Shown here: positions 23,145-33,943 of the stretch, one piece after another
Numbering within the stretch: position 1 is the stretch's first letter
Layout of the letters: each line of letters opens with the position of its first letter
Source of the DNA: Candidatus Zixiibacteriota bacterium
GTDB taxonomy: Bacteria > JAAXHH01
Length of the DNA stretch: 34,167 nucleotides
Direction: 5' to 3'
Assembly (NCBI GenBank): GCA_016867335.1
Contig: VGJU01000012.1
Location: 1 to 34,167 of the forward strand
Made by a program: the position numbers and the translations under genes
The notes under the pieces: model-generated
The model's input: only the letters and a program-made list of their open reading frames with translations
Told to the model about the DNA's origin: nothing
Database searches by the model: none

Positions 23145-26100
23145 ATGATACGTATGTTCAAATGGGTAGCAGGCGTATGCGGTGCGGGGCTGGTGCTCCT
23201 GTGCGCTACAGCTTTTGTGCTGTTTATGACTGCTTACGGCAGAGACGAGGTCCGGCGTTTTATCGAATGGCAGGCCGGAAAAAAGATCAACGGTCGTCTT
23301 TCCGTAGGTAAGGTGGCCGGCAGTCCGTGGGAGTACGTCTATCTCCAGGACGTATCGATCACCCTGCCCGGTTATCTTGGCGGCGCAGAAGTCGTCGGAG
23401 CCGACGAAATAAGCATAGGGGTGAGCGGCTGGGACTATCTGCGCTACGGACGCCCCGTTTCAGTGGTCAGAATAGACGGTCTTCGCATTGCCTATCTCCA
23501 AGACGTAGACGGAAAAGGGATGGACGCCATCACGGCGCTGACCGCCGGACGCACCGAAACCCCGGATACTTCCGTTACATCCGGGTTCAAACCCCCGTTT
23601 TCGATCCCGGAAATCCATATCGCCAGAGGTAGGTTTCTGTATTTCGATCCCCGTGATTCTACGGCGCTCGATGCCAAAAACTTCTTCTTGCGCGGCTCGA
23701 TGTGGAAATCGGGGCGGATCAAGGCCATCATCGGTACACACTCCTCCACGTTTACCCTCGACGGTTATACGGACAATCTGTCCACGATTTTTGCAAACGT
23801 AGAACTCCACGGCGATACGCTCAAGGTCAACGATCTTACCCTCGAAGCCACTGCCGCGCCACCGCTTGCTTTTCATGTGGAGGGTGTCGTTTCTTCCATC
23901 CGTAGCCGAACCGCCGATCTGACCGTAAAAGCCACCGGAAGCGTCGGCTCTATCACCCGCATTCTTGGGATGGGTACGCCAATAGAAGGACGGTTCAGTT
24001 TTTCGGCCTTTTTGCGCCATACCTTGACCGACCCGGATATCGAGGCCCATCTCGAATCTCCGATATTCGACACGGACATAGGGTCTTTCAAGCTGGTCTC
24101 CCTCGACTTGCGCTATGCGAGAAACGTTCTTGCTATCGATCGGTTCCGGGGGCGGCATGAGACAGGTACGCTTTCCGGACGGGCGCTGCTGGACATGTCG
24201 GCGCCGGAGTATCGGTACGAGTTGGTCGTCGCCCCTGCCGAGTTGGCGCTCGAAGCACTACCTTTCTCGCTTATCGGAGAAACATTTCCTGTGGTCGGCA
24301 AGGCCACGGTGGGGGCTGAATTGCATGGAATCGGGTTTGACGCGCTGCCCACACTGGCCCGTCTCGATATACAGGCCCCAACGCTTTGGATCGGGGGCAA
24401 AAGAGTGGACCGCATACAGGGAGAAGCCCGATATCGAAACGGCGATCTGCGTCTTTCCGTGCGCAATCCGGCGGCGCAAGTCGCCGTTTCAGGTACGATT
24501 CAAACAGGCGGAGTCGTTCATCTCGATGTAGAAGCGAAAGCGCCGGATATAAAAGCCGTCACCGATCTGCTGGGCATGACTCCCGTACAAGGGGCCGCCG
24601 ATCTTTCCGCTACGCTTGACGGGTCGATAGACCGCCCTGACATCCGGTTTAGCGGTCAGGCGCAAAAACTGCGTGTCGCCGAGGTGCCGCTAGGTCATCT
24701 GGAGGTCGCCGGTTTTTACGGGGCGGATCGAATGGTTCGTTTCGACGCACGGCTGGATACCACCCGGGCCGTGCTTTCCGGAGAGGTAGAATGGACCGGC
24801 GACTATCCGCTTACCGGCATGCTCAGAACCCAGAATCTCCGGTTGAAAGACTATATCGTCTCCGATCCGGGCATCGGGCTGGACGCACTGCTGAAAATCG
24901 AAGGAGAACTGGAGGGAACCCTCGCAAATCCGCTATTTCGAGGCAACGGGCTGGTACAGGACCTGACGCTGCGCGGGGCCGACTTGGGCAACGCCAGTGT
25001 GGCGATCAAACTGAGGAATCCGGATCTTACCTTTACCATCGTCAAACCCGACCTTTCGGTTATAGCGGACGGATTGGTCAGCCTTACCGACGGTTATCCG
25101 TACGATCTGCGGGTCAACATCAAACGGGCCAATCTGTCGCCTGCGCTCGGCGTCATTGCCCGACGACCCATCGAAAGACGAACCGGGTGGGTGACCGGTC
25201 GCATCGAGGCAAAGGGGTTGGCTTCTTATCCGGACCAATCCACAGTGGTGATCGGTCTCGACTCGTTGGCTATGATCATGGACGATCGGAATCTCCACTT
25301 TTCGGCTCCCTCCACCATAAAACTCGACAAACAGTTGCTTACGATCGACCATTTTGAACTGGTTGGGGATATCGGCCATATCCTCGTCAACGGGATCGCC
25401 AGCCTTACACCCGGCGGCATCGTCAATCTCGAAGCGTTCCTCGAAGGCGTCCATTTGGATTTCGTATCTCCCTTCATGGTCTCTCAGGGGGCGCTCGACG
25501 GTACGCTCGACGGTCTTTTTTCACTTAACGGTTCACCCGACGCACCCACCTTGAACGGAACGTTGTATTCTGCCGATGTGTTCTACTCCGTAGACCGGCG
25601 TGTAAACCAGATCGGATCGATCTCCGCATCGGTACTCTATGAAGATCGAATGCTCAGAATGCCTGCGCTAAACATCCGCACGCCCATGGGATCGTCGATG
25701 GCCAGCGTCGAGTATCCTATCGATCTTCGCTGGGCAGGCGGAGATACGCTTCCGCTTGATACTCGGTATACCGCGTCCGCGGTGATGGAAAATCTTTCCA
25801 TCGCGCCGTTGCGCGAATTGGTGTCGGGTTTTATGCAGGGACTGGACGGTCTAATTCATGGCCGCATCGAACTTGTCGGCTCCACCATCAACCCGGAAGA
25901 ACTGACCGGAACCGTAGCCATCGACGCGCTCCGTCTTACCGGGCTTCAAAACGAGTTGGTCAACACCGATTCGATCCTGATTGCATTTAGCAGAGGCTAT
26001 GCGGACGTGAAAACCTTCGATGTCGTTATCCGCCCGCTCCATGATGCCGCCGTCTTGCTTGGCCGCATCTCCGCAAAGGGACGGCTGGCGTACGGGACCG

Positions 26101-27797
26101 GTCTGAAACAGCCGGTCGAATCCGACTTTCAGGCATCGTTCGACCATGTAGCCATCGATGCCGCGCTGTCGCTTACCGATATCGACGTCCCGCTGAGCGG
26201 TTTGGTGGACGGTCGTATTACCGTTTCCGGACCGCCTTCCGAAACTTCCATAGACACCCGGTTTTCCGCGGGTCAGATTCGATACAACGACGCCCTGATG
26301 GACAGCATAACCGGTCGGATCGTCTACGGACACGATCAGCTTGTTCTCCATGATCTCTCTTTTCTAATAAAAGGGAACCTGCTTGCTGCATACGGCAATA
26401 TACCGCTTTCTCCCGATACCGGCGGTATGGCGATTACGATCGAGGGAACCGCGATCGATCTTTCCTTTCTCAACGGTGGTCTGTACGAACTGGAAAGGGT
26501 GGGAGGAACGGCGGATATTCGACTGGCTGTGGGCGGAACGCCGACGGCGCCGCGATCCCAAGGCGAAATCTATATCCGAAACGCTGACATTCAGATACGG
26601 GACGTCAACCCCCCGCTCAGAGCGCCGGAGATGCGTTTTCGGGTCGAAGAAAATCGTATCGTCCTTCGACCAGTCGAGTTCAAGACGGGCAAAGGAAAGA
26701 TAAGTCTATCCGGGCGGGCGACCTTCGACCGATCCGGTATAGACGATTTCGAAACCCAACTGGCGCTGAGCCGCTCCGAAATCGAAATGGTCGGAACGGC
26801 GCGTGTGGTCGTCAACGGAACGCTCTCGGTAACGGGAAATCGGAAACGGTCTCAGGCGATCAGTGTCAACGCACCGATTTCACTGGCCGGATCCATTATC
26901 TATCCGCTCGACCTAAGCGATCTTGTGCTGGGAACGGGAGCCGTTATACGCCCACCCAAAGCGCCGGATCCTTTTCTGGAAAACATGCAGCTCGACGTCG
27001 AGCTGGACGTTCCTTCCCTGCGGGTGAAAAACGATCTGGCGGATATGGAATTGGAGGGCGGACTGGCGTTTTCCGGTACGGCCCAAAATCCTATCGTCAC
27101 TGGTTATGCCACGGCAAAAGAGGGTGGAAATATCGTCTATATAGACACGCGGTTTGCTGTGGAGACAGGACGCATCGAATTTATTCTCCGGAATCCGCTG
27201 GAAAGCTTCGTAGCGCTGATCGACGATCCTATCCAGCAACTCGATCCGCAGATTACACTGATAGCGCGCGCCCCCCGCGTGCGGGACATCTATGGAGCCG
27301 AATACGAGGTCGTTCTTGGGTTAAACGGACGCACGCTACAGCTAAGCCCTCAACTTACCGCCGCCCCGATCGACAACGTAGGATCGAACGCTCCGCAGTC
27401 CAATCTGGTAGATCAGGAGGTCGTGTCGTTGCTTACCTTCGGTTTGCCGGGCATTACCACCGAGGGGGCGACCGACGCGGTGGCGGGGCTTGGGCAGCGC
27501 GCACTGCTCATGGCCACGGGAAGTTCGGCGCAGCGTGTCCTGAAACTCGACGAATTTCGTATCGAAGGCGATGTCTTCAACAACCGAGAAACCAGAACCC
27601 CGGCGCAGATTACCATCAGCAAGCGGATCAACCAGCGGGCACAGGTGACGTTTACCCGGCTGTTCGACTCGTCGGACTACAAACTCCGCGTGGGTTATCA
27701 GTTGACAAACTATCTGTTTATCGAGACATTTACCGACCAACTGAGCGAGCACCCGCAAAACGGTCTTGACCTCAAAGTAAAATTCCGATTCCGATGA
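23145..27797 (+). CDS. tamB: Translocation and assembly module / AsmA-like protein TamB
   Basis: 1550-residue envelope protein of the TamB (DUF490) / AsmA-like group, which bridges the inner and outer membranes and is linked to phospholipid transport and outer-membrane protein assembly. An N-terminal transmembrane anchor (VAGVCGAGLVLLCATAFVLF) is followed by a very long run of beta-rich repeats. The C-terminal ~400 residues carry the conserved TamB domain, ending KRINQRAQVTFTRLFDSSDY and the YQLTNYLFIETFTDQ block. ATG 23145 has GAAGG ten bases upstream. The stop overlaps the Omp85 gene by four bases, the known tamA/bamA-tamB partnership with gene order reversed. Confidence 0.88.
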   Translation: MIRMFKWVAGVCGAGLVLLCATAFVLFMTAYGRDEVRRFIEWQAGKKINGRLSVGKVAGSPWEYVYLQDVSITLPGYLGGAEVVGADEISIGVSGWDYLRYGRPVSVVRIDGLRIAYLQDVDGKGMDAITALTAGRTETPDTSVTSGFKPPFSIPEIHIARGRFLYFDPRDSTALDAKNFFLRGSMWKSGRIKAIIGTHSSTFTLDGYTDNLSTIFANVELHGDTLKVNDLTLEATAAPPLAFHVEGVVSSIRSRTADLTVKATGSVGSITRILGMGTPIEGRFSFSAFLRHTLTDPDIEAHLESPIFDTDIGSFKLVSLDLRYARNVLAIDRFRGRHETGTLSGRALLDMSAPEYRYELVVAPAELALEALPFSLIGETFPVVGKATVGAELHGIGFDALPTLARLDIQAPTLWIGGKRVDRIQGEARYRNGDLRLSVRNPAAQVAVSGTIQTGGVVHLDVEAKAPDIKAVTDLLGMTPVQGAADLSATLDGSIDRPDIRFSGQAQKLRVAEVPLGHLEVAGFYGADRMVRFDARLDTTRAVLSGEVEWTGDYPLTGMLRTQNLRLKDYIVSDPGIGLDALLKIEGELEGTLANPLFRGNGLVQDLTLRGADLGNASVAIKLRNPDLTFTIVKPDLSVIADGLVSLTDGYPYDLRVNIKRANLSPALGVIARRPIERRTGWVTGRIEAKGLASYPDQSTVVIGLDSLAMIMDDRNLHFSAPSTIKLDKQLLTIDHFELVGDIGHILVNGIASLTPGGIVNLEAFLEGVHLDFVSPFMVSQGALDGTLDGLFSLNGSPDAPTLNGTLYSADVFYSVDRRVNQIGSISASVLYEDRMLRMPALNIRTPMGSSMASVEYPIDLRWAGGDTLPLDTRYTASAVMENLSIAPLRELVSGFMQGLDGLIHGRIELVGSTINPEELTGTVAIDALRLTGLQNELVNTDSILIAFSRGYADVKTFDVVIRPLHDAAVLLGRISAKGRLAYGTGLKQPVESDFQASFDHVAIDAALSLTDIDVPLSGLVDGRITVSGPPSETSIDTRFSAGQIRYNDALMDSITGRIVYGHDQLVLHDLSFLIKGNLLAAYGNIPLSPDTGGMAITIEGTAIDLSFLNGGLYELERVGGTADIRLAVGGTPTAPRSQGEIYIRNADIQIRDVNPPLRAPEMRFRVEENRIVLRPVEFKTGKGKISLSGRATFDRSGIDDFETQLALSRSEIEMVGTARVVVNGTLSVTGNRKRSQAISVNAPISLAGSIIYPLDLSDLVLGTGAVIRPPKAPDPFLENMQLDVELDVPSLRVKNDLADMELEGGLAFSGTAQNPIVTGYATAKEGGNIVYIDTRFAVETGRIEFILRNPLESFVALIDDPIQQLDPQITLIARAPRVRDIYGAEYEVVLGLNGRTLQLSPQLTAAPIDNVGSNAPQSNLVDQEVVSLLTFGLPGITTEGATDAVAGLGQRALLMATGSSAQRVLKLDEFRIEGDVFNNRETRTPAQITISKRINQRAQVTFTRLFDSSDYKLRVGYQLTNYLFIETFTDQLSEHPQNGLDLKVKFRFR

Positions 27798-29662
27798 GGG
27801 TATCTTCTACAGACTCCATGCCCTTGACCGCTTTCTCCGTCTTTTCCGCGTCTGCCGTTTTCCGGCATTTTTTTCCGGCATTTTTTTCCCTGTTGCTGTT
27901 TGTCGTCCGTCCGTGTCTTGGCCAGACGCAATCACCTGTCATCGACCGTATCGTCGTGGAAGGAAACACTTTTATCAACGAGGATCGTATCAAGGACCTC
28001 ATGATTACCAAGACGGGCGGATTGTTTCGCAAAAAACAGCTCAATCAGGCGCTTTTGCGTGCAGACGTAAATGCGATAGAGAATTTCTATCGAAACAGTG
28101 GGTTCCTGAGCGTCCGGGTGCGTTCCACACGCGATGCTTTGCGCGAAAACCGGGTAGTCGTACGTATCGCGATCGACGAGGGACCTCGGTATCGGGTGCG
28201 GACAGTGGCTATCGTCGGCAACCGCTATCTTGCGGAGGACGATATCAGAAAAAATCTGCTGACCAAGGCAGGTCTGCCGTACTATCAACTTTTTGCCGCT
28301 GCCGACAAAAGAGCCATCGCCGCGCTTGCCGAGCGTCATGCGTTGCTGGATGCCGAAACGCGACTCGAACAAACGCTGAGCGAGGCCGATACCAGCATCA
28401 CCGTTACTTTTTTTATCGATGAAGGCGAGCCGAGCCGAGTGGGTGAAATTCGAGTACGGGGGCTTCAGAAGACCCACCCGTTTGTCGTGTTGCGCGAACT
28501 CGAACTCCGCAAGGGCGATCTATATGACAACAGCAAGATGGCCCGGAGCCAGACCCGGCTGTTTCAGACCGGTCTGTTTCGTAGCGTCCGTATGGAACCG
28601 GCCCGTTCCGATTCGGCTACTCATGCGCGTGACTTGTTGGTCAGCGTGATCGAACTGCCCGGCGGTGAGTTTAGCTTTGGCGGGGGCTTTGCCTCGGTAG
28701 AGCGGTTCCGGGGTAGCTTTAGCATCGCCCACCGAAATTTTCTGGGCCGGGCCATCACCATAGGAACCAACGCCCAAGCCAGTCTGCTCGTCCAGCAGGT
28801 CGATGCAGGCATCACCCAGCCTTGGCTTTTCAAAACCCGCACCACGGGAACCCTGCGCGGGTTTTTTACCCGACAGGACCGCAGAAGCCATATACAGCGC
28901 GAATTCGGCGCATCGATCATCGGCGTCCGTGAACTTTCCCGCGCACTTCGCTCGCAGACCACCTATACTATCAAAAACGTACGGGTTACCTCTCTTAGCG
29001 ACTCGCTTACGGCTATCCTGCAAGGAAGCAGTGTGGCCGACAGTCTGCGATCGCGCCGTGAGGGCAGTCTGACGCAACTCGTTCTCTACGACACGCGAGA
29101 CGACCTGCTCAACCCGACCCAAGGCATGTTTTCGCAAGTACAGGCCAATCTGGCCAGCCCTTGGCTCGGCAGTTCCTCCGCCAACCAGAACTCCACGCTG
29201 ACCCTGAACGGCGTGTTGAGAAAATATATCCCGCTCGGCAGATTTCCCGACATCGCCACGTCCGTATCGTTCGGTTATGTGCGCGCCCTCAGCAAAGGCG
29301 TCATCCCCCTCGACAAACGGCTGTTGCTCGGTGGCGACAAGTCGGTCCGAGGATACGCCATTCACCAGATCGGTCAGCCGGACGGCGGTGTCGTCGCCTT
29401 TAGTTCGCAAAACGAGATACGAATACCCGTCGGGTCTCTGCTGTTTGCCGGCTTTGTCGATCTGGGTGGAACGGGAAAAACGCTTGCGTCCTTCGTATTG
29501 AATGACATACAGATTGGATACGGCGGCGGACTGCGTATAGGGACTCCTATCGGCATGATCCGGGGAGACATCGGTTTTCATCCCAAAGGAGACATAGATC
29601 CTCCAACCGCGGGGCTGTACGAACGAACGTACTTCTATTTCGGTCTGGGGCAGGCGTTTTGA
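27794..29662 (+). CDS. Omp85-family outer-membrane protein (BamA/TamA-like)
   Basis: 622 residues. A long hydrophobic signal region ends near CLGQTQ. POTRA domains follow: VIDRIVVEGNTFINEDRIKD, then YRVRTVAIVGNRYLAEDDIR and SRVGEIRVRGLQ. A 16-strand-type barrel occupies ~300-622, with the GGDKSVRGYAI motif (the VRGY/F lid-lock signature) and a C-terminal Phe typical of outer-membrane barrels. ATG 27794 overlaps tamB by four bases; Met at 27818 is an alternative that shortens the signal peptide. Three or so POTRAs and coupling to tamB favour a TamA-like role over the essential BamA. Confidence 0.88.
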   Translation: MRVSSTDSMPLTAFSVFSASAVFRHFFPAFFSLLLFVVRPCLGQTQSPVIDRIVVEGNTFINEDRIKDLMITKTGGLFRKKQLNQALLRADVNAIENFYRNSGFLSVRVRSTRDALRENRVVVRIAIDEGPRYRVRTVAIVGNRYLAEDDIRKNLLTKAGLPYYQLFAAADKRAIAALAERHALLDAETRLEQTLSEADTSITVTFFIDEGEPSRVGEIRVRGLQKTHPFVVLRELELRKGDLYDNSKMARSQTRLFQTGLFRSVRMEPARSDSATHARDLLVSVIELPGGEFSFGGGFASVERFRGSFSIAHRNFLGRAITIGTNAQASLLVQQVDAGITQPWLFKTRTTGTLRGFFTRQDRRSHIQREFGASIIGVRELSRALRSQTTYTIKNVRVTSLSDSLTAILQGSSVADSLRSRREGSLTQLVLYDTRDDLLNPTQGMFSQVQANLASPWLGSSSANQNSTLTLNGVLRKYIPLGRFPDIATSVSFGYVRALSKGVIPLDKRLLLGGDKSVRGYAIHQIGQPDGGVVAFSSQNEIRIPVGSLLFAGFVDLGGTGKTLASFVLNDIQIGYGGGLRIGTPIGMIRGDIGFHPKGDIDPPTAGLYERTYFYFGLGQAF

Positions 29663-29738: not shown

Positions 29739-30026
29739 ATGATCCAGTTGCACATCTATCTCGACGTCGAACCGGGCAAGGAAAAAGCGCTCGAAGAAAC
29801 CTACCGCAACGCCTACGTGCCCGCTATTGTCGTGCAGGACGGCTATGTAAGCACGGCGCTTATCAAGTCGATGAACGGCATGCGCCGATATCAGATCGAT
29901 ATCGCGTTCGAAACCGAGGAAAAACGTCTCCACTGGGTAGCCTCCAAAGAACACCAAGAGGCATGGCCTTCCATCGACGCCCTGTGTCACACTATTACGT
30001 GGCAAGGGTTTGACGTGATCGCCTGA
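29739..30026 (+). CDS. Small ABM-like (antibiotic biosynthesis monooxygenase fold) protein
   Basis: 95 residues with the start IQLHIYLDVEPGKEKALEET and a following VQDGYVSTALIKS, a pattern seen in the dimeric alpha/beta ABM / ferredoxin-like family. The reaction is unknown, and such proteins range from haem-degrading to structural. ATG 29739 has an excellent AGAGGAGG six bases upstream, so an upstream in-frame ATG at 29682 is not the start. It lies 13 bases before the selenoprotein gene and may share its transcript. Confidence 0.7.
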   Translation: MIQLHIYLDVEPGKEKALEETYRNAYVPAIVVQDGYVSTALIKSMNGMRRYQIDIAFETEEKRLHWVASKEHQEAWPSIDALCHTITWQGFDVIA

Positions 30027-30039
30027 ACGGAGTTTTTGC

Positions 30040-31353
30040 ATGAATCTGTTGCGTGTTCGGGACGGATTTGCCGTCGCCATGCTGGCCGTCGCTGTCGCAT
30101 GGGTGGCGCAGGCGGCGGGCAAGCCTTCCCTGACCGTTCTTTATACCGGCAATACCAACGGGCAACTCGAAGTCTGCACGTGACCGGGGAATCCCTTCGG
30201 CGGTCTGCCGAGGCGAGCTACCCTGTTGCGTGAACTCGGAGTGGGACAAGCGCATACCCTGACCGTGGATGCCGGGGACCTGCTAGGCTGGCGACCGGAT
30301 GTCCGCAGACACGAGACGCTGCTCGACGGCATCCGGCAGATCGGCTATGACGTCATCGGGCTGGGCGACAACGATTTTGTAGACGGCGCCCCCTTTTTGT
30401 CGGATGCGATTCGGATGCGGAAACTGCCCGTCGTAGCCGCCAATATCGCCATGACGGCAAACAGCGGCGAGATCGCGCCCCCGTACCGGATCGTGAAAAA
30501 AGGCGGACTCCGCATCGGTGTCATCGGACTTGTTTCCGTAGAGAGTTTTCGCACCATGCCACCGTCTCGAATGAAAGAAATCGCGCCTACCGATCCGGCG
30601 GAGACGCTGCGCCGTTTATTGCCCGACGTCCGCAAAAAGTCGGATATCGTGATACTGCTCTCTCATGGCGGCGTGATGCGAGACCGAGAACTGGCGCGGC
30701 AGTTTCCCGGTATCGCCGTCATCGTCGGCAGCCATGACCGCCATATCCTGCACACGCCGATCCGGGAGGGTGAAACGCTGATCGTTCAGGCCGGTCCGAA
30801 CGGCGCATACACAGGTGAACTCATTCTGGAAATCGACCGCAACAAACGGATACGCGATTACCGGGGACGGTTGATTCCGATAGACGAACACATCACGCCG
30901 GACCTTGCGCTCCAGCGTCGAATCGACGCTTACTACGAAACCCCGACCGGGCTGGTGCGCCAAGGCGCGTTACATACGCCCGACCGCACACCGTTTCAGG
31001 GCGCCAAATCCTGCCAACCTTGCCACCAAGACGCCTACCTCCAGTGGAAGGCTTCTCGCCATGCGCACGCATTCGAAACGCTTGTGCTCGAAAACAAAAA
31101 CACCCACCCGGAGTGCCTCGGTTGTCATACGACAGGATTCGGCCAGCCTTCCGGATACCGTGACACCGCCTCAACCCCGCATCTGTCGGACGTACAGTGC
31201 GAAGCGTGTCATCGCATGACCGCCGGACACGATTTTCCCTTGCCACGCAACCCCGTTCCACCCGTCACCCCTGAAGTCTGCACAGGGTGTCATACCCCCT
31301 CGCAGAGCCCGGGATTTCGATACGAAGAAGCATTGTCTCACGTAAAACACTGA
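30040..31353 (+). CDS. Selenoprotein: periplasmic metallophosphoesterase-like domain fused to a tetrahaem cytochrome c
   Basis: Read through the in-frame TGA at 30181, this is 437 residues with Sec48. A signal peptide (DGFAVAMLAVAVAWVAQAAG) precedes TGNTNGQLEVCT-Sec-PGNPFGGLPRRA, where Sec stands at the second Cys of a C-x-C-P-like motif. A 5'-nucleotidase/SoxB-like phosphoesterase fold follows (VDAGDLLG, GLGDNDF, LSHGG, GSHDRH), but the first metal motif D-x-H reads N-T-N. Four CxxCH haem sites stand at 325, 359, 387 and 414, as in c554-type domains. Coding signal, in-frame signal peptide and the SECIS hairpin at 30194-30213 argue against a pseudogene. ATG 30040 has GGAG seven bases upstream. 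Conventional calling starts at 30226 and loses all of this. Likely periplasmic redox protein; substrate unknown. Confidence 0.85.
30181..30213 (+). promoter_or_regulatory. UGA (Sec) codon and bacterial SECIS element
   Basis: UGA at 30181-30183 is followed by a stem CCU-(U)-CGGC / GCCG-AGG (30194-30201 with 30207-30213) with a bulged U at 30197 and apical loop GGUCU (30202-30206). Counting the U of UGA as 1, the bulged U is 17 and loop G-U are 23-24, the same numbering and same loop sequence that I recall for E. coli fdhF, where those bases contact SelB. Sequence directly seen; SelB recognition is inferred. Confidence 0.85.
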
Positions 31354-31367
31354 CTACGGGATCGTTT

Positions 31368-32966
31368 ATGTTCTCAAAACCACAGTATCGTACATTTGCC
31401 TTTTACCGTTTTCCGGACGACCCCGGCCAGCGAGAGCAAAACCTCGACGGATGCGCAGCAAACGGTTTCAGCCACCTCATCCTGACTCGGAATATGGACC
31501 TCAAAGCCGTACTCGGCACCGAAGACGGAAAACGTCAACTCGTCTCTTTTCTGGATGCCGCCGCCGCGCGGCAGATGGGATGCGTCCTGCCCATCGGCAA
31601 TCCCAGAGAACTGTATCTATTGCCGGACGTGAGAAAATGGCGGATGGACTATATCCGTCATGTGGCCGAATCGCTCGGCGCGCATCCGGCGGTCTATGCG
31701 CTGATGCTGGAAGACGCTCCGACAGGCGGTGCGCAGTTTGGCTTGGACCGTTGGAAAACCGTCACTACCGAGTTGGAAGGCCGAATGGAAGGACAACTAC
31801 TGACCGAAGCGGGGTATCAACACACCGTAACCACTTGGCAGATGGAACAGTATACCGCCTATGTCAAAGAAATGACGGAGACCGTCAAAAAGGTTCGCTC
31901 GCGTCTGAAAACCACGATTTGTTTTCATTGGGACGCCCTTTTCCCCGCCCGGACGCTGGTACATTTCCAAGATGTCGCGGCCTGTCTCGACTTTGTCGTC
32001 ATCGAGGCCGGTTCCGAGTCTGTCTACCACCCGATCCGAATGCGTTATCTGCCTCGGAGCGTCGTCGGTGCTGCCGCGACGCTGACCGACCGCGAGGTAT
32101 GGATGACAGTGGACGGACACGTTCCCTTCGGCGTGTACGGCCCTGTGCCAAAAGAAGTTCGAGAATGGACGCTTCAGGTCCGCGAGCAAGGCGTCCGGAC
32201 ATTTGGATGGCGTGAGGGCGCAAGCACCGAGCCCGATGCTCGTTCGGCGTTTTCGAGCGCGTACCGGGCGTCGGTTCTGAAGATCGCCCGCGGCATGGCG
32301 GAGCAGGAGGCGGACCGCAATGCCGCATCCGCAAACGCCTGTCTGGTGTCCATCGACTCGTTTGCCGCCCGGTTGCCATGGCTCGACTGCGCGACGGTCG
32401 GCATGGTCCTCGGTGCACACGCCGAAATGGGGCTTCGGTATGTGACCGACACGCAACTGCGTAGAGGGGAAAAACTCCAGAAAGTCCGCATGTTGGTTAC
32501 GACGCCTTGTCCGGTTTATCGAGCGGACTTGATCGAAAAGCTGGTCCGGTTTATGGAACAGGGTGGATGGATCGTAGCTTCGGGGAACGATTTTACGATG
32601 GACGAGCAACAGCGTTTCGCGCCGGCGCATGACCGACTGTTCGGGCTTCAGAAAGCGGAAGAATCGGAAAACGAAGACCACATTCTTCTTGCCGTTTCGT
32701 TGCCCTGGCTGGCCGAAGGAACCCTGCTGGAAACCGCGTGTCGCCGTGTGCGCGCGACCGGTGTAGACGGGCAGACGCGCGTACTGGGCCGCTGGGGAGA
32801 CGGAACCCCGGCCATGTTGCTGAAACGACACGGGAAAGGAGGTGGCCTCTATATCGGCACCGACCCGTATCAGGCGGCGCTCTTATCCGGAAATCCGTCC
32901 GACTGGGGGCGACTGTTTCGGTCCATCGCCGACCCGGACTGGCTCAAAACATGGAGTGAGGGATAA
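31368..32966 (+). CDS. Glycoside-hydrolase-like protein (TIM barrel plus GATase-like domain)
   Basis: 532 residues, not assigned to a numbered family. Residues ~1-310 look like a TIM barrel (FYRFPDDPGQREQNLDGC, SHLILTRN, VYALMLEDAP, TTICFHWD, VRTFGWREG). Residues ~345-460 resemble the GATase-like trimerisation domain of GH42-type enzymes (RMLVTTPCPVYRADLIEKLV, FMEQGGWIVAS). No signal peptide is obvious, so it is probably cytoplasmic. An upstream open extension overlaps the selenoprotein; ATG 31368 with GGGAT upstream is preferred, 14 bases after the preceding stop. Substrate unknown; Glu in LEDAP could be catalytic. Confidence 0.6.
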   Translation: MFSKPQYRTFAFYRFPDDPGQREQNLDGCAANGFSHLILTRNMDLKAVLGTEDGKRQLVSFLDAAAARQMGCVLPIGNPRELYLLPDVRKWRMDYIRHVAESLGAHPAVYALMLEDAPTGGAQFGLDRWKTVTTELEGRMEGQLLTEAGYQHTVTTWQMEQYTAYVKEMTETVKKVRSRLKTTICFHWDALFPARTLVHFQDVAACLDFVVIEAGSESVYHPIRMRYLPRSVVGAAATLTDREVWMTVDGHVPFGVYGPVPKEVREWTLQVREQGVRTFGWREGASTEPDARSAFSSAYRASVLKIARGMAEQEADRNAASANACLVSIDSFAARLPWLDCATVGMVLGAHAEMGLRYVTDTQLRRGEKLQKVRMLVTTPCPVYRADLIEKLVRFMEQGGWIVASGNDFTMDEQQRFAPAHDRLFGLQKAEESENEDHILLAVSLPWLAEGTLLETACRRVRATGVDGQTRVLGRWGDGTPAMLLKRHGKGGGLYIGTDPYQAALLSGNPSDWGRLFRSIADPDWLKTWSEG

Positions 32967-32980
32967 AACGGAGAGGTGAC

Positions 32981-33943
32981 ATGGCTTACCCTACGTTTGA
33001 CAGAAGCAAGCTGGTATTGCGACCGCTCGCCGAGCGAAAACACGATATGGGACTCGACTACGTGTTGCCGCTCGACGTGGAAACCCCGGTTTTCGATCAT
33101 CCTCATATACACACGGTGGCGGAGCGGATCGTATCCGCGCGCCGCAACGACCGGGCCGTCATCTTGCTCATGGGGGCGCACGTCATCAAGATGGGGGTAT
33201 CGCGGCATATCATCGACTTGATGGAACGCGGATGGATCACCCATATCGGGATGAACGGGGCCGGTCCGATCCATGATTACGAACTGGCTCTTATCGGGGC
33301 CACCACGGAGAGCGTGGCAAATTACATACGCACCGGTGAATTCGGGTTGTGGGAAGAAACGGGTCGGATCAACGATATCGTTCGGGAAGCGGCGCGGGAG
33401 GGCATCGGCATGGGGGAGGCAATAGGCCGCGCCATTGCCGAGGGGGATTTTCCTCACGGCGAGGTAAGTATCTTTGCCGCCGGATACCGACTGGGTATTC
33501 CGGTTACGGTGCATGTCGGCGTGGGGTACGACATCATCCATGAGCATCCGTCGTGCGACGGTGCGGCGCTGGGGGCGGCTTCGTATACGGACTTTCTGGT
33601 GCTGGCGCGCTCCGTGGATCGCTTGGAAGGGGGCGTCATGCTCAACGTGGGTTCGGCGGTCATGGGGCCGGAGGTCTATCTTAAGGCGCTCTCGATGGTG
33701 CGCAATGTCGCGCACCGTGAAGGGCGTCAGGTGGCGCATTTTACCACAGCCGTGTTCGATTTGCTGGAACTGGGAGACTACGGTTCGGAAGCGGCGAAAT
33801 CCGACCCCAGATACTATTACAGACCGTTCAAGACGATTCTGGTACGTACGGTACGAGACGGCGGAGAAAGCTACTATCTACAAGGCGACCACCGCGTTAC
33901 GCTACCGGACTTGCGTCGTCGGCTATGCGTCCTGCCGATCTGA
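32981..33943 (+). CDS. Deoxyhypusine synthase-like protein (bacterial family)
   Basis: 320 residues with strong likeness to the deoxyhypusine/homospermidine synthase superfamily: HVIKMGVSRHIIDLMERGWI, HIGMNGAGPIHDYELALIGA, the FGLWEETGRINDIV block, SIFAAGYRLGIPVTVHVGVG, DGAALGAASYTDF and VMLNVGSAVMGPEVYLKALS. Bacteria lack the eIF5A substrate, so the enzyme probably acts on another amine or is a homospermidine-synthase-like transferase. ATG 32981 has GAGAGG four bases upstream. The gene follows the glycoside-hydrolase-like gene by 14 bases and is the last plus-strand gene in the window. Confidence 0.82.
   Translation: MAYPTFDRSKLVLRPLAERKHDMGLDYVLPLDVETPVFDHPHIHTVAERIVSARRNDRAVILLMGAHVIKMGVSRHIIDLMERGWITHIGMNGAGPIHDYELALIGATTESVANYIRTGEFGLWEETGRINDIVREAAREGIGMGEAIGRAIAEGDFPHGEVSIFAAGYRLGIPVTVHVGVGYDIIHEHPSCDGAALGAASYTDFLVLARSVDRLEGGVMLNVGSAVMGPEVYLKALSMVRNVAHREGRQVAHFTTAVFDLLELGDYGSEAAKSDPRYYYRPFKTILVRTVRDGGESYYLQGDHRVTLPDLRRRLCVLPI

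What the first reader, a model, noticed from the sequence alone, without database searches (positions are those of the whole stretch)
30040..31353. Candidate selenoprotein: phosphoesterase-tetrahaem cytochrome with in-frame UGA
The frame from ATG 30040 has a signal peptide, then runs through one TGA (30181) into a 390-residue C-terminal part with phosphoesterase motifs and four CxxCH sites. The UGA replaces a Cys in a C-x-C-P-like motif just before a GGLPRRA block. A nonsense mutation would not be expected to bring a SECIS hairpin with it. A fused phosphoesterase/cytochrome c selenoprotein of this layout is not one I recognise as characterised, so it could be a new or little-known family with a selenol next to haems in the periplasm.
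Basis: partly seen in the sequence, partly recalled or inferred. Interest (0 to 1): 0.93.

Follow-up and report, generated by a model that had tools for sequence, protein, structure and literature searches.

The report
UshA-like selenoprotein with four haems
This is very probably a genuine selenocysteine-containing protein, a phosphatase-like domain joined to a four-haem electron carrier, but it belongs to a family already listed in databases and reviews whose chemical job is still unknown.

Summary
One frame from ATG 30040 passes a single UGA (30181-30183) and ends at TGA 31351-31353. It encodes a signal peptide, a 5'-nucleotidase-like domain with a Cys-x-Sec motif (C46-T-U48) and four CxxCH sites. 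The selenoprotein reading is well supported. Three homologues in the phylum carry UGA at the same codon. Cys replaces Sec in relatives elsewhere. A hairpin with an E. coli fdhF-like GGUCU loop, 18 nt after the UGA, is conserved against synonymous-codon nulls. The genome has selB and selD. Its selA is truncated and tRNA-Sec is missing, but selB runs off its contig end just where relatives carry tRNA-Sec. It is not a new family: CxU UshA-like selenoproteins have been in print since at least 2008, and NCBIfam NF041198 covers both halves, haem part included. The window protein scores 264 against a cut-off of 275; its nearest relative scores 281. What is worth keeping is mechanistic: the residues that bind metals and catalyse phosphate hydrolysis in 5'-nucleotidases are scrambled across the family, while Cys-x-Sec/Cys is nearly invariant. 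The most likely role is a selenol-based periplasmic redox enzyme wired to haems on a retired phosphatase scaffold. Substrate unknown; no biochemistry was done.

The parts
30040..31353 (+). UshA-like selenoprotein gene (437 aa with Sec, plus stop)
30029..30032 (+). GGAG, likely ribosome-binding site
   Evidence: read from sequence
30040..30117 (+). probable signal peptide (residues 1-26)
   Evidence: hydrophobic N-terminus, model helix 3-25; inferred
30121..30939 (+). 5'-nucleotidase/calcineurin-like domain, residues about 28-300
   Evidence: PDB profile match, structure match to 3ivd, Z 34.6, rmsd 2.4 over 283 residues
30175..30177 (+). Cys46 of the Cys-x-Sec motif
   Evidence: 31 of 33 aligned homologues have Cys
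30181..30183 (+). UGA read as selenocysteine (residue 48)
30195..30213 (+). bacterial SECIS-type hairpin: stem 30195-30201/30207-30213, loop GGUCU 30202-30206, loop begins after 18 nt from UGA
31012..31026 (+). CxxCH haem site 1 (C325-H329)
31114..31128 (+). CxxCH haem site 2 (C359-H363)
31198..31212 (+). CxxCH haem site 3 (C387-H391)
31279..31293 (+). CxxCH haem site 4 (C414-H418)

Best explanation
The gene encodes a divergent member of the UshA-like (COG0737, CxU) selenoprotein family in a Latescibacterota genome. SelB recognises the GGUCU hairpin just after the UGA and delivers Sec-tRNA, so residue 48 is selenocysteine. The protein is exported and receives four c-type haems. The phosphatase scaffold has lost most of the conserved metal and acid-base residues, and the Cys46-x-Sec48 pair, next to the loop that normally carries the first metal ligands, is the new active centre. 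It most likely exchanges electrons between a small substrate (perhaps a sulfur or related oxyanion or persulfide) and the haems. Supported here by comparative sequence evidence: selenoprotein, family, architecture, loss of canonical ligands. Inferred: export, haem attachment, redox activity, direction of electron flow, substrate.
For: UGA at the same codon in homologues L025, L026, L027, with invariant residues on both sides. In a second phylum-wide sample, 139 of 297 genomes match the family at E<=1e-30 and most listed hits that cover the N-terminus contain one TGA. Cys at the Sec site: Armatimonadota L052 CGCPGNPFGG, and L137 and L138 ELCGC. SECIS: Gly codon +7 is GGT in 29 of 33 Sec genes against 15.6% elsewhere in the same genes, binomial p 9e-20; hairpin stem 5.64 of 6 pairs against 4.13 under synonymous codon choice, 0 of 400 shuffles as good, 22 of 33 perfect against 4.8%; same 18-nt spacing and GGTCTG as E. 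coli fdhF. selB 381 bits, over cut-off; selD 289 bits, over cut-off. tRNA-Sec (TCA) lies about 40-170 nt downstream of selB in the relatives compared by place, and selB in this genome runs off the contig end. Redox role: the residues aligned with CD73 H38 and dyad H118 are His in 2/33 and 0/33, while Cys46 and Sec/Cys48 are kept in 31/33 and 32/33. Neighbours in 4 of the loci from the phylum of G020 are nonahaem proteins with a cytochrome b561-like part and, in 3 of them, 16-haem NrfH-like proteins.
Against: tRNA-Sec is not in the assembly and selA is only an 85-aa fragment at a contig edge. The window protein scores 264.3 against the NF041198 cut-off 275. In the Latescibacterota members some ligand positions survive (D80, H209, mostly H232), so residual metal binding is possible. 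Free-energy z-scores of the 54-nt region are weak on average, mean -0.37. No partner gene that names a substrate lies in the window; its neighbours are tamB/tamA-like and an unclassified gene.
Confidence: 0.7

Rival explanations
1. It is a selenoprotein but still a metal-dependent phosphoesterase, in which Sec or Cys is a substituted metal ligand or a structural pair, and the haems serve a separate role.
For: Fold match to 5'-nucleotidases is strong. D80, H209 and H232 are kept in the window protein. Sec48 aligns by profile with a Cys of the venom 5'-nucleotidase 5h7w.
Against: The first-metal Asp and His are both Asn here, the dyad His is Asn, and ligands drift freely in the family. The nucleotide-binding C-terminal domain of UshA is replaced by cytochrome.
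Confidence: 0.2
2. The UGA is a nonsense mutation or sequencing error in a normal Cys gene, or the real gene starts at TTG 30226.
For: A 375-aa ORF exists after the UGA.
Against: UGA at the same codon in three other genomes and across many in another group; hairpin conserved; a start at 30226 would drop the signal peptide and the most conserved block.
Confidence: 0.02
3. It is a SoxB-like thiosulfohydrolase variant acting on a sulfur carrier, with Sec attacking the persulfide.
For: SoxB model matches at E 6e-27; SoxB structures align over model residues 28-437 at Z 32.
Against: 94 bits against the SoxB cut-off 550; Z is no better than for 5'-nucleotidases; no SoxYZ was sought, and none was noticed next to it in the window.
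Confidence: 0.08

Closest known systems
NCBIfam NF041198 UshA-like (seleno)protein (UshA_like_PCGU), the UshA-like CxU family of PMC2398784, PMC9312934 and PMC13188914
   Same: CxU motif, COG0737-type domain, C-terminal tetrahaem part aligned to model positions 348-519, UGA in most members
   Different: Scores just under the cut-off (264.3 of 275); motif is CTUPGNPFGG rather than PCGU; shorter stretch between the two parts (model positions about 273-347 unmatched); Latescibacterota host
NCBIfam NF049981 UshA-like selenoprotein family 2
   Same: Related N-terminal domain
   Different: 47 bits against a cut-off of 140; reported motif CxxU (PMC13188914); the 262-position model is too short to include the haem part
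UshA / CD73 5'-nucleotidase
   Same: N-terminal fold, Z 32-34
   Different: Metal ligands and dyad His largely lost; C-terminal nucleotide-binding domain absent; Sec and haems added
SoxB thiosulfohydrolase
   Same: Same fold
   Different: Far under the family cut-off; SoxB has no haems (own knowledge)
Cytochrome c554 (PF13435)
   Same: C-terminal haem part passes the Pfam cut-off
   Different: Fused to a Sec domain

Membership tests
UshA-like (seleno)protein NF041198 | Score at or above the curated cut-off of 275 | tested here: not met
   264.3 bits, summed over both parts, with C in place of U; nearest homologue L025 reaches 281.2. So the curated label is not claimed for the window protein; it is filed with the published CxU family.
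UshA-like selenoprotein, COG0737 CxU, as published | Cys-x-Sec/Cys motif in a 5'-nucleotidase-type domain | tested here: met
UshA-like (seleno)protein NF041198 | Both model halves matched in one protein, haem part included | tested here: met
   44-252 and 348-519 of 519
Bacterial selenoprotein | In-frame UGA conserved or exchanged with Cys in homologues | tested here: met
Bacterial selenoprotein | SECIS hairpin at the right distance after UGA | tested here: met
   computed, not shown by experiment
Bacterial selenoprotein | selB and selD in the genome | tested here: met
Bacterial selenoprotein | selA and tRNA-Sec in the genome | tested here: inconclusive
   selA C-terminal fragment at a contig edge; tRNA-Sec not found, selB cut at the contig end where relatives have it
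Bacterial selenoprotein | Selenium in the protein | not testable with these tools
   needs mass spectrometry or 75Se labelling
5'-nucleotidase (UshA/CD73) | Conserved metal ligands and catalytic His | tested here: not met
   N38, N40, D110, N111 in place of D, H, N, H
SoxB thiosulfohydrolase TIGR04486 | Score over cut-off 550 | tested here: not met
   94.1 bits
Cytochrome c554 PF13435 | Score over gathering cut-off 20.8 | tested here: met
   60.7 bits

The most novel reading that the evidence does not exclude
The whole UshA-like Sec family is a pseudo-phosphatase: a hydrolase scaffold whose metal centre has been replaced by a Cys-x-Sec redox centre feeding or drawing electrons through a fused tetrahaem module, a new class of periplasmic respiratory selenoenzyme.
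Probability: 0.45. Interest if true: 0.6.

Novelty: new member of a known kind. Interest (0 to 1): 0.33.

Why it matters
The find itself supports selenocysteine use in a candidate phylum (Latescibacterota); my one search of the held library found no paper about it there. The broader value is a testable statement about an orphan family that is common in the second sampled group (139 of 297 genomes matched, 57 over the cut-off): the phosphatase name is probably misleading and the conserved chemistry is the selenol-haem pair.

Tried and rejected
Viral contigs: no relative. Rfam on the SECIS region: nothing relevant. A tRNA-Sec pattern in the own genome: none; the places hit by the tRNA-Sec model that I scanned with ARAGORN were ordinary tRNA genes such as tRNA-Ser, -Leu, -Trp and -Tyr. 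Minimum-free-energy z-scores of the 54-nt region were too weak on average to argue with, so position-specific tests were used instead; these were chosen after seeing the hairpin. A fixed single stem register also looked poor because the loop length varies from 5 to 7; lets the register vary, in the data and in the null alike. The genome-contig scan used a pattern with Cys codons at the Sec site, so it undersamples Sec forms. Neighbour families of most loci in the phylum of G020 that I identified were housekeeping or unrelated (MgsA/RarA-type ATPase, pyrophosphatase, GlnE, aldehyde ferredoxin oxidoreductase) and gave no substrate. Considered and rejected: genome-wide UGA reassignment, nonsense mutation.

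Full report
Observation. The frame from 30040 is as described: signal-like N-terminus, LTVLYTGNTNGQLEVCT-UGA-PGNPFGGLPRRA, then 389 codons with four CxxCH and a TGA stop at 31351. The gene lies after an ABM-domain gene (29739-30026) and tamB/tamA-like genes (my reading of 23145-29662), and before an unclassified 532-aa gene. The order tamB-like, BamA/TamA-like, this gene, 532-aa gene is kept in L042 and L044, so the locus belongs to its genome despite about 5% estimated contamination.

Is UGA read as Sec? Four lines agree. (1) All three full homologues found in the 16 held genomes of the phylum have one TGA at this codon, in a block that is nearly invariant on both sides. Record titles of two of these contigs name Candidatus Latescibacterota (the contigs are the same by coordinates). 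(2) The site exchanges with Cys: L052 (Armatimonadota) reads CGCPGNPFGG, and L137 and L138 read ELCGC. One member, L067, has lost both residues (PSGR). (3) Hairpin. In 33 Sec genes (32 distinct stretches) the codon for the second Gly of GGL is GGT in 29, against 15.6% for other Gly codons of the same genes. In five non-Sec genes with the same spacing (L043, L052, L067, L137, L138) it is GGC or GGG; of six others read, whose spacing or motif differs, three have GGT (L139, L142, L147), so this small control is only suggestive. The six-pair stem that ends 18 nt after the UGA is far better paired than synonymous codon choice gives. The sequences are related and not independent, so these p-values overstate the case. 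E. coli fdhF has the same spacing and GGTCTG. (4) Machinery: selB (639 aa, open at the contig end), selD (fused behind an NADH dehydrogenase-like part), a selA fragment. tRNA-Sec is missing, but in G004, G006, G009 and G015 it starts about 40-170 nt after selB, on the same contig and strand; ARAGORN names it tRNA-SeC (TCA) in the four loci scanned. Here the contig stops near the end of selB.

What is it? NCBIfam NF041198, UshA-like (seleno)protein, matches both halves. The window protein falls just below the cut-off and its nearest relative just above. PMC2398784 (2008) already lists UshA-like CxU sequences; PMC9312934 and PMC13188914 (2026) list the family, the latter with NF041198. In the phylum of G020 (a record titled Deltaproteobacteria), 57 of 297 genomes have a match over the cut-off. 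So the kind is known; its function was not described in the passages I read.

How might it work? AlphaFold gives mean pLDDT 86; the N-terminal part has the 5'-nucleotidase fold. Reading the CD73 ligand positions (numbering from my own knowledge, placed by the profile alignment) through 33 homologues shows D36 kept in 19, H38 in 2, D85 in 14, N117 in 0, the dyad His118 in 0, H220 in 11, H243 in 12. Alignment in the drifting parts is less sure than in the motif itself. Column 46 is Cys in 31, and column 48 Sec or Cys in 32. One search prints Sec as C; which rows are Sec is. Selection therefore appears to hold the Cys-x-Sec pair and not the metal site. The Sec residue is joined to a tetrahaem module, and among 20 neighbourhoods taken four (L123, L132, L133, L134) have a nonahaem protein with a b561-like part and three (L123, L132, L133) a 16-haem NrfH-like protein. 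A selenol redox centre linked to respiration is the best reading. This step is inference. Haem-free Sec members also exist (L075, L080, L082, L085), so the haem part is not required throughout the wider family.

Verdict. Real selenoprotein (about 0.95), known family, function open. Interest is modest for the find, higher for the apparent family-wide loss of the phosphatase site.

Noticed in passing
L043 3586-7209: Armatimonadota protein of about 1208 aa with two UshA-like modules in tandem, both with Cys instead of Sec.
   Followed up: partly
L067 1-1548: Homologue with PSGR in place of PCGU: both Cys and Sec lost although the four haem sites remain.
   Followed up: no
L075, L080, L082, L085: Sec-containing UshA-like proteins of 333-379 aa without CxxCH sites.
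   Followed up: no
window 31368-32966: 532-aa protein without Pfam or NCBIfam match, conserved next to the selenoprotein in L042 and L044.
   Followed up: partly
window 32981-33943: GSU2086-family protein, 400.9 bits over a cut-off of 250.
   Followed up: no
L023 1292-3418: selD fused behind an NADH dehydrogenase-like domain, open at the contig end.
   Followed up: no
L123, L132, L133, L134: Nonahaem protein with a cytochrome b561-like part (all four) and a 16-haem NrfH-like protein (the first three) near the selenoprotein.
   Followed up: partly
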